The translations under genes and the position numbers were made by a program. From assembly GCA_937900975.1 (NCBI GenBank), contig CALCPC010000804.1:1-5183 (forward strand): DNA of 5,183 nt, in the 5' to 3' direction. The DNA comes from an uncultured Paracoccaceae bacterium. GTDB taxonomy: Bacteria; Pseudomonadota; Alphaproteobacteria; Rhodobacterales; Rhodobacteraceae. Positions 1,304 through 4,064 of this stretch are shown piece after piece. Position 1 is the first letter of the stretch. Each line of letters opens with the position of its first letter. The notes below the pieces were generated by a model, which did no database searches, was not told the origin of the DNA, and worked only from the letters and a program-made list of their open reading frames with translations.

Positions 1304-2419
1304 ATGAAGATCAGCATAGAGCGATCTGCGCTCCTCCGCGCGATGAGCCGGGCGCAGTCGGTGGTCGAACGGCGCAACACCATTCCGATCCTGGCCAATG
1401 TGCTGATCGCATCGGACGAGGACGCGATCAGCCTCAGGGCCACCGACCTGGACATCGAAGTGATCGACCGAACGCCCGCAATGGTGCTGCAGGCCGGCGC
1501 AGTGACCGTGGGGGCGCACACGCTGCACGATATCGTGCGCAAACTGCCCGATGGCGCGATGGTCGAACTGGCCGATGACCCCGCCGCCGGGCGGCTGCAC
1601 GTCCGTGCCGGGCGCGCGCAGTTCGCGCTGGCCACGCTGCCGCGCGAGGATTTTCCAGTGATGGCCAACAGCGCCTACGATTGTAACTTCGCCGTCGACG
1701 CGACGGTGCTTAAGCGGTTGTTCGACAAGTCGAAATTCGCGATCTCCACGGAAGAAACGCGCTATTACCTCAACGGCGTTTACCTGCATCTGGGCCAAGC
1801 GAGCGACGGCCAGACCCTGCGGGCCGTGGCGACCGACGGCCACCGGCTGGCCCGGATCGAAGCCACGTTGCCCGACGGGGCCGAAACGCTGCCCGGAGTG
1901 ATCGTGCCGCGTAAAACCGTGCTGGAGCTGGGAAAGATTTTGGAAGGCGACGCGCCGATCGCGGTTTCGGTATCCGAGACAAAGATCCGGTTTGCCACAC
2001 CGGATGTGACACTGACGTCGAAGGTCATCGACGGCTCGTTTCCCGATTATGCGCGGGTGATCCCCCAAAACAACGCAAAGCGGCTGGAGGTGGACGCCGC
2101 GGAGTTTGCCCGCGCGGTGGATCGGGTGGCGACAGTGTCGTCGGAACGCTCTCGGGCTGTGAAGCTCGCGCTTGACGAAGATCGGCTGGTGCTGTCGGTC
2201 AATGCGCCGGATAGCGGGAATGCCGAGGAAGAATTGGCGGTGGCCTATGGTGACGAAACGCTCGAAATTGGGTTCAATGCCAAGTATTTGCTGGAGATTG
2301 CCGACCAGGTTGATCGGGAAAACGCGGTTTTCTTGTTCAACTCTCCGGGTGATCCATCGCTGATGCGCGAGGGCAATGACGAAAGCGCGGTCTATGTTGT
2401 CATGCCGATGCGCGTCTGA
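1304..2419 (+). CDS. dnaN: DNA polymerase III beta subunit (sliding clamp)
   Basis: DnaN forms the ring-shaped homodimer that encircles DNA and tethers DNA polymerase III; it also recruits other polymerases, ligase, MutS/MutL and the Hda-type DnaA inactivation system. The product has 371 residues, the usual size for the family, made of three successive clamp folds (about 1-120, 128-250 and 251-371). Visible hallmarks are the opening MKISIERSALLRAM, the ATDGHRLA motif (176-183), VIDGSFPDY (241-249) and the C-terminal MPMRV (367-371), which forms part of the partner-binding pocket. The ATG at 1304 is preceded by a G-rich Shine-Dalgarno stretch, GGGGGA (1290-1295), eight nt upstream, which supports this start. 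The gene follows dnaA and precedes recF, as in many bacteria. Immediately after the stop, the DNA becomes extremely rich in inverted repeats. The long antisense frame over this gene is a codon-bias shadow. Confidence 0.98.
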   Translation: MKISIERSALLRAMSRAQSVVERRNTIPILANVLIASDEDAISLRATDLDIEVIDRTPAMVLQAGAVTVGAHTLHDIVRKLPDGAMVELADDPAAGRLHVRAGRAQFALATLPREDFPVMANSAYDCNFAVDATVLKRLFDKSKFAISTEETRYYLNGVYLHLGQASDGQTLRAVATDGHRLARIEATLPDGAETLPGVIVPRKTVLELGKILEGDAPIAVSVSETKIRFATPDVTLTSKVIDGSFPDYARVIPQNNAKRLEVDAAEFARAVDRVATVSSERSRAVKLALDEDRLVLSVNAPDSGNAEEELAVAYGDETLEIGFNAKYLLEIADQVDRENAVFLFNSPGDPSLMREGNDESAVYVVMPMRV

Positions 2420-2421
2420 CC

Positions 2422-2441
2422 GCGCTCTGCCGCAGGAGCGC
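2422..2441 (+). repeat. Hairpin directly after the dnaN stop codon
   Basis: Three nt after the dnaN TGA, GCGCT (2422-2426) pairs with AGCGC (2437-2441) and CTG (2427-2429) with CAG (2433-2435), giving an 8-bp stem with a CCG loop and one bulged G at 2436. No T-run follows, so it is not a classical intrinsic terminator. It could protect the dnaN mRNA 3' end or simply be an element of the repeat-rich spacer. The pairing is visible; the role is unknown. Confidence 0.5.
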
Positions 2442-2448
2442 TGGACGT

Positions 2449-2565
2449 GGGTCTGGGACGGTGTCGACGGCGCGTAAACGCGCCGTGCGCGCGGCTTGCC
2501 GCGCGCGTTCGGGCAAAGCCCGAACCGACACCTTGCGCCCCGCTCAAGCATAGCGCCTCAGACCC
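2449..2565 (+). repeat. Outer long-range stem enclosing the cloverleaf element
   Basis: GGGTCTG (2449-2455) is exactly complementary to CAGACCC (2559-2565). The pairing can extend inward by a G-T wobble (2456/2558) and a G-C pair (2457/2557), giving nine pairs that bracket the 73-nt element at 2460-2532. Between the two structures, 2458-2459 and 2533-2556 remain, the latter with only weak self-pairing. The 3' arm ends one base before a TTG in frame with recF and close to the recF ribosome binding site. The outer stem could therefore bring the whole structure next to the recF start. A single 7-bp match across about 100 nt in GC-rich DNA could also be chance. Confidence 0.4.
2460..2532 (+). repeat. 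Perfect cloverleaf-like inverted-repeat element between dnaN and recF
   Basis: The 73 nt can pair completely except for the loops. Closing stem: GGTGTCG (2460-2466) with CGACACC (2526-2532), 7 bp. Arm 1: ACGGCGCG (2467-2474) with CGCGCCGT (2479-2486), 8 bp, loop TAAA. Arm 2: GCGCGCGG (2487-2494) with CCGCGCGC (2499-2506), 8 bp, loop CTTG; in RNA this is a CUUG tetraloop closed by G-C, a known stable type. Arm 3: GTTCGGGC (2507-2514) with GCCCGAAC (2518-2525), 8 bp, loop AAA. The helices abut with no unpaired junction base, so 62 of 73 nt are paired without a mismatch. The complementary strand has the same architecture with arm order reversed. It lies wholly between dnaN and recF. It is not a tRNA: loops are 3-4 nt, and there is no anticodon loop or CCA end. 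It has no U-run for termination. Function is unknown; it may be a dispersed palindromic repeat or an RNA/DNA structural element. Confidence 0.85.
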
Positions 2566-2567
2566 TT

Positions 2568-2582
2568 GGGCGGGATCCCCGC
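2568..2582 (+). promoter_or_regulatory. recF ribosome binding site within a small hairpin
   Basis: The G-rich run from 2568 to 2575 (ending GGGA) is the only Shine-Dalgarno-like sequence before the recF ATG at 2584, with about 8 nt spacing. It decides in favour of that start over the in-frame TTG at 2566, which has no such sequence. GCGGG (2570-2574) is also complementary to CCCGC (2578-2582) with an ATC loop, so the ribosome binding site can be masked by a 5-bp GC hairpin. This would be expected to lower RecF translation. The pairing is seen; the effect is inferred. Confidence 0.45.
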
Positions 2583-2583
2583 G

Positions 2584-3684
2584 ATGAGCCTGGCCGTCAC
2601 GCGGCTTTCGCTGCGGTATTTCCGGTCCCACAAGGAGATGGATCTGCGCGCCCATCCCGGCCCTATCGCGGTGTTCGGACCGAACGGGGCGGGTAAAACC
2701 AACTTGATTGAGGCGCTTTCGCTGTTGTCACCCGGCCGGGGATTGCGGCGCGCAGCGCGCGAGGACTTTGCCCGTCAGCCCGAAAACATTGGCTGGAAGG
2801 TCAGCGCCACGCTCCAAGCAGGCGATACCCAGCATGATATCGCCTGCTGGGCTGAGCCGGGCAATCCACGCCTGACCGAGATTGACGGAAAATCGGCCAC
2901 CCAAACGGCGTTGAGCCGGATCGTGCGGATCCTGTGGCTGACCCCTGCCATGGACAGGCTTTGGCAGGGACCGGCGGCGGACCGGCGCCAGTTCCTTGAT
3001 CGTCTGACCATGAGTTTCGAGCCCGCCCATGCCGAAGCTGCAATCGCCTATGAGAAAGCGATGCGCGAACGCAACCGTTTGTTGCGCGACGGGATCCGCG
3101 ACGCGGGTTGGTTCGATGCCTTGGAGGCGCAATTGGCCGAAACCGGCAGCCGCATCGCCGCCAACCGCCGGATCGCCTGCGCCCTGCTTGAGGCCGCGCA
3201 AGCCGATGCCGCCACCGCTTTTCCAACGGCCCATCTTCGCATCGAAGAAACCGACACACCCCCCGAGGCCGACGCCGAAACACTGCGGCAAGCGCTAGGC
3301 GCGGGGCGCGCGCGCGATGCCGCCGCGGGCCGCACCCTTGTCGGACCGCACCGCGCCGATTTGGTCGCCACCTTCGCGGCCAAGGACACCCCGGCCCGCC
3401 TGTCATCGACCGGAGAGCAAAAGGCGTTGCTGATCTCGCTGGTTCTGGCCAATGCCCGCGCATTGGCGGCCGACTTTGGCGCGCCGCCGATCCTTCTTCT
3501 CGACGAAGTGGCGGCGCATCTTGATGCCGACAGACGCGCCGCGCTTTATGGGGAGGTGACAGCCTTGGGCGCGCAAACTTGGATGACGGGCACCGGCGCG
3601 GGCCTTTTTGAGGCACTTGGCGACGCCGCTTTGCGCTATGCGGTGCGGGAGGATGACGGCGTCTCTACGGTGCAGCCAGCCTAA
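2584..3684 (+). CDS. recF: DNA replication and repair protein RecF
   Basis: RecF is an SMC/Rad50-like ABC ATPase that acts with RecO and RecR to load RecA onto SSB-covered gaps and stalled forks. From the ATG at 2584 the protein has 366 residues, close to the usual 350-380. Motifs in order: Walker A GPNGAGKTN (32-40), the RecF-typical ADRRQFLDRL (132-141) in the arm region, GPHRADL (254-260), the ABC signature LSSTGEQK (273-280), and Walker B/D-loop ILLLDEVAAHLD (303-314) with catalytic E308. All ATPase residues are intact. The in-frame TTG at 2566 would add six residues but has no ribosome binding site, and family members usually begin close to the chosen Met. GC content is much higher than in dnaA. 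The gene sits 164 nt behind dnaN and is separated from it by a strongly structured spacer, suggesting that its expression is uncoupled from or attenuated relative to dnaN. Identification is secure; the start is likely. Confidence 0.97.
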   Translation: MSLAVTRLSLRYFRSHKEMDLRAHPGPIAVFGPNGAGKTNLIEALSLLSPGRGLRRAAREDFARQPENIGWKVSATLQAGDTQHDIACWAEPGNPRLTEIDGKSATQTALSRIVRILWLTPAMDRLWQGPAADRRQFLDRLTMSFEPAHAEAAIAYEKAMRERNRLLRDGIRDAGWFDALEAQLAETGSRIAANRRIACALLEAAQADAATAFPTAHLRIEETDTPPEADAETLRQALGAGRARDAAAGRTLVGPHRADLVATFAAKDTPARLSSTGEQKALLISLVLANARALAADFGAPPILLLDEVAAHLDADRRAALYGEVTALGAQTWMTGTGAGLFEALGDAALRYAVREDDGVSTVQPA

Positions 3685-3727
3685 CGCGTGCTGACTATCC
3701 CCGACTATCAGGCCCGCATCGCACGCG
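3685..3727 (+). repeat. Inverted repeat with a long loop just after recF
   Basis: CGCGTGC (3685-3691), directly after the recF TAA, is complementary to GCACGCG (3721-3727), leaving a 29-nt loop. The loop contains GACTATC twice (3693-3699 and 3703-3709) with a 10-nt period. The sequence after the stem is CTTAAAAC, not a T-run, so I do not call it an intrinsic terminator. It may be a 3'-end structure of the recF message, or chance in GC-rich DNA. Confidence 0.3.
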
Positions 3728-3891
3728 CTTAAAACGCCAGACCCGATCCCACGTGGTCCGATCCGAAGGCGCCATGCCGAAGGCCCGTTTCGGACGCCGG
3801 GGCGACGGTTCGTGGATGCAGCCCTTCTGTGTGCTTTTCGGTCAACGCCAGGCGATCACACTTTCAAAAATACCACCCAAAACCAGGGCTT

Positions 3892-3914
3892 TGCTGCTTC
3901 TCAAGCAGTGTTTT
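3892..3914 (+). terminator. Possible weak intrinsic terminator downstream of recF
   Basis: CTGCTT (3894-3899) pairs with AAGCAG (3903-3908) around a CTC loop; two G-T wobbles could lengthen the stem to 8 pairs. TGTTTT follows (3909-3914). The geometry fits an intrinsic terminator on the + strand, but the stem is short, has little GC, the T-run is interrupted, and it lies more than 200 nt beyond the recF stop. It could end recF-operon transcripts before the exporter gene. Confidence 0.3.
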
Positions 3915-4064
3915 CCAATCCTTTGTCACCGCGATACCAAGCCCGGCGGCCGCATTGGGATCTCAAGCCGCGCGCCGTGCCTTTGCTGCCGCAGTTTCGG
4001 CGCGCTGGGGGCGCCTTTCCAGCTCGGCGCTGGACATCCGCACGCGCGATCGGTTCTTGAGCCC

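What the first reader, a model, noticed from the sequence alone, without database searches (positions are those of the whole stretch)
2460..2532. Perfect, fully paired cloverleaf (four-way junction) element between dnaN and recF
Three contiguous perfect hairpins of 8 bp each (loops TAAA, CTTG, AAA) are enclosed by a perfect 7-bp stem, with no unpaired base at the junction. 62 of 73 nt pair without one mismatch, which is far beyond chance even in GC-rich DNA. It is not a tRNA, a usual terminator, or a simple REP palindrome. Both strands give the same four-way shape, so it could act as RNA (blocking decay, attenuating dnaN-to-recF read-through) or as a DNA cruciform resembling a Holliday junction. 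Its self-contained design suggests a dispersed miniature element that inserts as a unit.
Basis: partly seen in the sequence, partly recalled or inferred. Interest (0 to 1): 0.78.

Follow-up and report, generated by a model that had tools for sequence, protein, structure and literature searches.

The report
Dispersed four-armed DNA cloverleaf repeat
One bacterial genome holds twelve versions of a roughly 70-letter DNA stretch that is predicted to fold into an almost perfectly paired four-armed cross, and the pairing survives while the letters change, even inside the ruvA gene of three related species, so the shape is likely spread and kept as folded DNA.

Summary
In detail: window 2460-2532 folds into a 7-bp stem closing three contiguous 8-bp hairpins, 62 of 73 nt paired. 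It is not unique. This genome (a Rhodobacteraceae draft) holds ten largely intact copies of the sequence family, this one included, two damaged ones and two divergent cloverleaves. Across the ten, 34 pair cells changed on both sides while 98% stay paired. Thirteen cloverleaves contain 386 pairs and no G.U; tRNA stems of relatives have 8.5%. The pairing is therefore a strand-symmetric DNA property, which argues against RNA selection alone. The covariance model found this family in none of 393 other family members, at limited sensitivity, but the fold recurs there with other sequences. A cloverleaf sits at one site inside ruvA in three species of two genera: 93 of 93 pairs Watson-Crick, 12 double-sided changes, none one-sided. 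A fourth species keeps the three arms. A sequence-blind scan of 2.34 Mb of relatives found four three-armed cloverleaves, none in shuffles. Best reading: a REP/REPIN-like miniature repeat locked in the clover fold, likely spread as single-stranded DNA and kept perfect by template-switch correction or DNA-structure selection. No Y1 transposase was found; mobility is unproven. New variant of a known kind.

The parts
2460..2532 (+). 73-nt fully paired cloverleaf (four-way junction), this copy of the dispersed element
   Evidence: CM hit 92.4 bits (the copy is in the model)
2460..2466 (+). Outer stem, 5' side GGTGTCG (pairs with 2526-2532); contains a TGTC tag-like tetramer
   Evidence: pair counts (helix 1: 100% paired, 4 of 7 pairs with double-sided changes)
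2467..2486 (+). Arm 1: ACGGCGCG-TAAA-CGCGCCGT, 8 bp
2487..2506 (+). Arm 2: GCGCGCGG-CTTG-CCGCGCGC, 8 bp
2507..2525 (+). Arm 3: GTTCGGGC-AAA-GCCCGAAC, 8 bp
   Evidence: 5 of its 8 pairs never vary, the most of the three arms
2526..2532 (+). Outer stem, 3' side CGACACC
2533..2545 (+). Weakly conserved 3' flank TTGCGCCCCGCTC, similar in several copies; possibly part of the inserted unit (inferred)
   Evidence: conservation falls away after about 13 nt; 5'/3' flank complementarity not clearly above shuffled
1304..2419 (+). dnaN (DNA polymerase III beta), stop codon 40 nt before the element
   Evidence: Pfam
2584..3684 (+). recF, starts 51 nt after the element
   Evidence: Pfam RecF/RecN/SMC N-terminal domain; the name recF also rests on gene order (recalled)

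Best explanation
The dnaN-recF cloverleaf is one copy of a dispersed REP-like palindromic DNA repeat that likely spread as a folded single strand and whose pairing is likely kept by DNA-level events acting on both strands alike. Shown: twelve cloverleaves (ten of one sequence family, two divergent) and two damaged copies in this genome; double-sided Watson-Crick changes with no G.U; no such element in the dnaN-recF spacer of two congeners; a cloverleaf at one site inside ruvA in three species. Inferred: copying through a folded single strand (lagging-strand or excised DNA) by an enzyme supplied in trans; perfecting of the arms by template switching inside the hairpins and/or selection for the DNA fold; survival mostly downstream of stop codons because insertion there is least harmful. 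Where transcribed, the structure would also form in the mRNA, as a by-product.
For: Ten largely intact, two damaged and two divergent copies in the own genome. Pair counts on the ten: 98.1% of 308 cells paired, 34 double-sided changes against a shuffled mean of 11.6 (0 of 500 reach it), sliding the partner destroys it. No G.U in 386 pairs of 13 cloverleaves against 18 of 213 in ten tRNAs. By RNA parameters the clover beats an approximate single long hairpin in 10 of 10; as ssDNA the minimum energies of the two strands are alike. Spacers: dnaN-recF 164 nt here, 91 and 92 nt in two congeners; bchH-bchL 136 nt here (37+66+33) against 22 nt in G002 and 25 nt in G003. Each of the 10 copies has at least one neighbour whose stop codon faces it, so none lies between divergent genes. 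ruvA in three species: 93 of 93 pairs Watson-Crick, 12 double-sided and 0 one-sided changes; of 90 ruvA linkers 75 have no perfect hairpin of 7 bp or more, 11 have one and 4 have three at nearly the same offsets. In 2.34 Mb of three relatives the scanner finds 4 three-armed, 1 two-armed and 0 four-armed structures, 0 in shuffles.
Against: No Y1 (RAYT/IS200-type) transposase domain in the own assembly, which is only 78% complete. No target-site duplication or sharp end recognised; the extra bchH-bchL sequence (111-114 nt) is larger than its 66-nt cloverleaf, and the flanks do not clearly extend the outer stem. BLAST matches are 76-82% alike over most of the element and BLAST missed four of the ten copies, so recent movement is not visible. 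The spacers of the congeners match in length at dnaN-recF but are not alignable by eye. One measure, the number of further pair types, is not far above shuffles (18 against 15.3; 33 of 500 reach it). The models missed known cloverleaves: both R1 searches missed the G001 ruvA one and R2 missed the G003 one, so absence in 393 relatives concerns this sequence family and is not exhaustive. Template switching is taken from the literature, not observed here.
Confidence: 0.6

Rival explanations
1. RNA element: the cloverleaf acts in the transcript as a terminator, attenuator or block to 3'-5' decay between dnaN and recF, and stem covariation reflects RNA selection.
For: 9 of 10 copies lie 24-131 nt from a facing stop codon, the tenth (C94) 221 nt, none between divergent genes. 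The RNA fold is very stable, -57.4 kcal/mol for the 73 nt. Some copies have short T-runs after the stem.
Against: 0 of 386 pairs G.U against 8.5% in tRNA stems. No terminator-like site at the window copy (other copies not scanned). Of 8 copies in same-strand settings 6 are sense and 2 (C99, C94) antisense, one-sided p 0.14 (for C506 and C905 only one neighbour is known; C729 and C508 lie between convergent genes). Three orthologous copies lie inside the ruvA coding sequence.
Confidence: 0.17
2. Holliday-junction decoy: the four-way shape is the functional feature, bound by junction proteins (RuvA, RuvC, SSB or others), and the ruvA copy could autoregulate ruvA.
For: Exactly three arms plus a stem recur with unlike sequences; the fold persists inside ruvA in three species while codons change. 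Each strand is predicted to form its own four-way junction.
Against: No protein evidence. Most copies are not near recombination genes. 86 of 90 ruvA linkers examined lack the three arms, and so does the congener G002. REP insertions in DNA-repair genes are described without such a role being shown (PMC3733652, passages).
Confidence: 0.08
3. Ordinary MITE: a non-autonomous remnant of an IS with terminal inverted repeats, mobilised by a DDE transposase; the inner hairpins are incidental.
For: Outer inverted repeat, dispersed copies, no element at the dnaN-recF site in congeners.
Against: Pairing of the inner arms is kept (95-99% of cells) as well as that of the outer repeat, which is only 7 bp; no target duplication was recognised in the flanks as read. 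DDE transposases and a full-length partner element were not searched for.
Confidence: 0.1
4. Chance or artefact: GC-rich DNA or assembly error produces spurious hairpins.
For: The genome is a fragmented draft in 907 contigs; the C102 pair of copies looks damaged. At a very lax setting (arms of 4 bp) the scanner does no better than shuffles in 60 ruvA genes (5 against 7.3).
Against: 0 in all shuffled sequence at the strict setting; orthologous covariation in ruvA of separate assemblies, including the single-contig G001.
Confidence: 0.02

Closest known systems
REPINs (REP doublets forming hairpins, associated with RAYT tyrosine transposases; PMC3116915, 2011, passages read; authors Bertels and Rainey recalled)
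   Same: Short dispersed inverted-repeat units in extragenic DNA, predicted to fold in ssDNA or mRNA, with compensatory changes across the hairpin; the legend of Figure S11 names a 'clover' configuration as an alternative fold.
   Different: There the clover is called the less stable alternative; here it is the more stable fold in 10 of 10 copies. The two outer arms differ in sequence. No GTAG tag seen and no Y1 transposase found. About a dozen copies only.
CGTC-tagged REPs and their head-to-head dimers (PMC3733652, 2013, passages read)
   Same: Stems of 8-9 bp, tags outward in dimers, spacers that sometimes hold hairpins, position downstream of genes, occasional insertion in DNA-repair genes, no dedicated transposase. 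7 of 10 copies here have CGTC or TGTC in the outer stem (counted by me from the sequences).
   Different: A-T pairs at stem positions 1 and 2 are not met; the 3-bp tail was not found, since the next arm follows at once; here a third arm and a fully paired junction are constant.
Rickettsia palindromic elements (RPE), in-frame insertions in coding genes (as described in PMC3733652, passages)
   Same: Palindromic DNA tolerated in frame inside genes, as in ruvA here.
   Different: Here the intragenic copy shares a site across species and keeps perfect pairing through double-sided changes; not compared by sequence.
RIME elements of rhizobia (two palindromes in intergenic DNA; recalled, only a search listing seen)
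   Same: Alphaproteobacterial intergenic palindromic mosaic.
   Different: Sequence and three-arm architecture not compared here.

Membership tests
REPIN / RAYT-associated REP | Encoded RAYT (Y1_Tnp, PF01797) in the genome | tested here: not met
   0 matches in the own genome; the control rings in 6 of 14 named genomes. The assembly is 78% complete, so a gap could hide it.
REPIN / RAYT-associated REP | GTAG tag beside the stem | tested here: not met
   No GTAG in or next to the outer stem of the ten copies, read by eye
REPIN / RAYT-associated REP | Two inverted REPs with a spacer, folding as one unit in ssDNA | tested here: inconclusive
   Outer stem plus arms 1 and 3 fit a doublet with a hairpin spacer, but arms 1 and 3 are not copies of each other; clover favoured in 10 of 10
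CGTC REP dimers | CGTC or TGTC tag next to an 8-9 bp stem | tested here: inconclusive
   7 of 10 copies carry CGTC or TGTC in the outer stem, one base away from arm 1 (sequences); feature from PMC3733652
CGTC REP dimers | A-T pairs at the first two stem positions | tested here: not met
   Arm 1 begins with A-T in 9 of 10, but its position 2 is C-G or G-C in 10 of 10; arm 3 begins with G-C in 10 of 10
CGTC REP dimers | Location downstream of genes, not between divergent genes | tested here: met
   Each of 10 copies has a facing stop codon on at least one side; in 2 of the 10 the other neighbour was not identified
Rfam-described RNA | Match to a curated family | tested here: not met
   No match overlaps 2460-2532 up to E 5
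tRNA | ARAGORN detection | tested here: not met
   0 genes in the window
Intrinsic terminator | GC hairpin followed directly by a T-rich run | tested here: not met
   0 sites in window 2380-2640
DDE-type MITE | Terminal inverted repeats with target-site duplication | tested here: inconclusive
   A 7-bp outer repeat exists; no duplication recognised in the flanks as read; no alignable empty site

The most novel reading that the evidence does not exclude
A class of genomic elements is defined by three-dimensional DNA shape, not sequence: about 70 nt, exactly three arms plus a stem, a fully paired four-way junction, kept by strand-symmetric compensatory change in intergenic spacers and in frame inside ruvA. 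The shape itself would be recognised by junction-handling proteins, making ruvA a gene that carries its own protein's substrate.
Probability: 0.1. Interest if true: 0.88.

Novelty: new variant of a known kind. Interest (0 to 1): 0.62.

Why it matters
Stem covariation is usually read as proof of a functional RNA. Here strong covariation comes with no G.U pairs, which points to a DNA-level cause and gives a simple test to separate the two. The ruvA cloverleaf, at one site in three species and held inside a coding sequence, makes the open question of how palindromes stay perfect (selection on DNA shape or template-switch correction) directly testable.

Tried and rejected
tRNA, Rfam RNA and intrinsic terminator: no support. 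Extended outer stem through the GC-rich flanks: own 5'/3' flank score 6.5, between copies 6.94, shuffled 6.05, so not taken up. Sense-orientation bias: looked strong at first, fell to 6 of 8 (p 0.14) after finding that C99 and C94 are antisense to both neighbours, so dropped. Plasmids: 8 records with short partial matches, E 0.2-0.8. Phages: 27 records, the 10 listed at E 0.9. Viral contigs: 29 stretches with an exact pattern match, none a cloverleaf by the strict scanner. Conserved cloverleaf in dnaN-recF spacers of relatives: 0 in 80 loci, 549,009 bases, relaxed setting. The R1 hit in G001 at C1:3920143 is not a clean cloverleaf. The R2 hit C488 (E 0.7) was read by eye and set aside. A first pair count on A5 used a structure with wrong columns and is replaced. 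The automatic alignment A4 (38 matches, both strands) and A1 (one copy in the wrong orientation) were not used; A8 was not counted because its gap breaks arm C, and the three ruvA rows of A7 were counted instead. Early ruvA scripts failed or missed sequences (one search printed nothing, one search stopped with an error, searches missed G001 and G002); settled by tblastn. Paper PMC3543383 was read by passages and is unrelated.

Searches of the literature whose listings showed no description of this element: (open-licence library only, listings and a few papers by passages).

Full report
WHAT IS THERE. The window is contig C804 of a draft genome (3.88 Mb, 907 contigs, 78% complete) encoding dnaA, dnaN, recF, a LysE-type exporter and the start of gyrB (some names by gene order). 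The 80 best dnaN relatives kept are nearly all titled Rhodobacteraceae or genera I know as such. Positions 2460-2532 form exactly the structure described. As single-stranded DNA each strand of the 73 nt folds at about -39 kcal/mol.

A FAMILY IN THIS GENOME. BLAST with the element found further copies; those folded are again four-way cloverleaves, except the damaged C102 pair. A covariance model from six copies (R1) and one from ten (R2) gave ten largely intact copies: C804 (the window), C729, C46, C528, C506, C508, C99, C94, C83 and C905. They also gave the damaged pair on C102 and, weakly, two divergent cloverleaves on C98 and C670 that an arm-3 pattern search had turned up. 'Largely intact' allows one mismatch each in C508 and C46. 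The neighbours are ordinary chromosomal genes: dnaN-recF; an ABC transporter; gyrB; an acyl-CoA dehydrogenase; an enoyl-CoA hydratase; a protein without Pfam match (C506); dgt and argS; bchH and bchL; an SDR gene and gatB; a periplasmic binding protein (Pfam domains; the gene names dgt, argS, gatB, bchH and bchL are my reading of the domains). Each copy has at least one neighbour whose stop codon faces it, at 24-131 nt in nine copies and 221 nt in C94. For C506 and C905 the other neighbour was not identified.

STRUCTURE IS KEPT, SEQUENCE IS NOT. On the ten-copy alignment A5, 98.1% of 308 pair cells form a standard pair. Fourteen of 31 pairs have double-sided changes (34 cells; shuffled mean 11.6; 0 of 500 shuffles reach it). 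Sliding the 3' partners by 1-3 columns drops pairing to 26-51%. The number of further pair types is less striking: 18 against 15.3, reached by 33 of 500 shuffles. That alignment shows two one-sided cells and a few G.U cells. I ascribe them to gap placement in C508 and C528, whose arms differ in length; the individual folds contain none. Folding 13 cloverleaves one by one (the ten, C98, C670 and G003 ruvA) gives 386 pairs: 315 G-C, 71 A-T, 0 G.U. The control, ten distinct tRNAs in fetched stretches of relatives, has 18 G.U in 213 pairs. G.U pairs are acceptable in RNA but are mismatches in DNA and become A.C on the other strand, so their absence points to a DNA-level or strand-symmetric cause. 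This is inference from a strong count.

WHERE IT OCCURS. R2 over 394 family genomes matched only the own genome. This must be read with care: 11 candidates per genome were scored with strict filters, R2 missed the known G003 cloverleaf there, and R1 missed the G001 ruvA one. So the sequence family looks confined to this species as far as searched, but the fold is not. A sequence-blind scan of 2,338,975 bases from G001, G002 and G003 found four three-armed cloverleaves, one two-armed, no four-armed, and none in shuffles (parts). Two of the four are ruvA copies already known. One lies inside an SDR-like coding sequence of G003 (family by eye). One lies 39 nt after the stop of a glutathione S-transferase gene in G001, with outer stem GGCGTGC/GCACGCC. 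None was found in 80 dnaN loci of relatives, nor in 400 kb of G002.

THE ruvA COPY. C670 and G003 carry a cloverleaf inside ruvA, in the linker before the C-terminal domain. G001 carries one at the same place. In these three, 93 of 93 pairs are Watson-Crick, with 12 double-sided and no one-sided changes. With C98 added, the counts are 123 of 123 and 13. The encoded residues differ (MVSGVPETSAASPQTPPSAAMA, TAAGVPAAPAAGPQAPQDAVVA, MVSGMPDTPQAMPAAQPQSAEMA). Of 90 ruvA linkers examined, 75 have no perfect hairpin of at least 7 bp, 11 have one, and 4 have three at offsets 32, 54 and 73-76. The fourth is G119, whose closing stem is interrupted. The strict scanner, run on 92 ruvA loci (of 121 matches found), finds three. 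The congener G002 lacks it. Common descent and repeated insertion at one site cannot be told apart here.

EMPTY SITES. The dnaN-recF spacer is 164 nt here, or 91 nt without the element, and 91 and 92 nt in G001 and G002. The spacers are too diverged for me to align by eye, so the equality may be chance. bchH-bchL is 136 nt here (37 + 66 + 33) and 22 and 25 nt in G002 and G003; the extra 111-114 nt exceed the 66-nt cloverleaf. Flanks are weakly conserved for about 13 nt on the 3' side and 11 nt on the 5' side, but they do not clearly extend the stem. The exact unit is therefore open.

MECHANISM. The best-supported reading is a REP/REPIN-like miniature palindromic repeat. Known REPINs are two inverted REPs with a spacer that fold in ssDNA or mRNA and show compensatory changes; a 'clover' fold is mentioned as their less stable alternative (PMC3116915, passages). 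Here the clover is the more stable fold in 10 of 10 copies, by RNA parameters and against an approximate long hairpin; arms 1 and 3 are not copies of each other. CGTC-type REP dimers share the position after genes, structured spacers, the occurrence in DNA-repair genes and the lack of a transposase (PMC3733652, passages). But the A-T start of their stems is not met and the tag is present in only 7 of 10. No Y1 transposase was found. Template switching during replication has been proposed to create and help keep perfect stems, its authors calling the upkeep part circumstantial (PMC8794818, passages). Related proposals for coding inverted repeats were seen only as abstracts in the listing (PMC6649704, PMC8604942). 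Spread as ssDNA and template-switch upkeep are inferred, not shown.

VERDICT. The element is a new variant of a known kind. Its unusual features are a locked, fully paired four-way fold, Watson-Crick-only covariation, and a coding-sequence copy at the same ruvA site in three species.

Noticed in passing
L119:1935-2004, L297:1935-2004, L118:1938-2010 (ruvA of G000, G001, G003): Perfect cloverleaf inside the ruvA coding sequence at one site in three species, all pair changes double-sided; three arms also in G119 (L121:1660-1770, minus strand).
   Followed up: yes
L365:16984-17053 (G001): Intergenic 70-nt cloverleaf 39 nt after a glutathione S-transferase gene, outer stem GGCGTGC/GCACGCC followed by TTGCCGCC, resembling the window family's stem and flank.
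   Followed up: partly
L207:19028-19100 (G003): Near-perfect three-armed cloverleaf inside a coding sequence that looks like a short-chain dehydrogenase (by eye).
   Followed up: partly
L013 (G000 C102, 724-911): Two damaged copies in a row with odd GC-rich sequence; possibly a rearranged pair or an assembly problem.
   Followed up: no
L157 (G117), dnaN-recF spacer: Three strong hairpins in a row, not contiguous, between dnaN and recF of another relative; no obvious sequence likeness.
   Followed up: no
L213:5863-5940 (G003): Three near-contiguous long hairpins with a 4-bp closing stem after a gene that looks like a BMP-family lipoprotein (by eye); seen only at the relaxed scanner setting.
   Followed up: no
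window 3685-4064: About 380 nt without a recognised gene between recF and the LysE-type gene.
   Followed up: no
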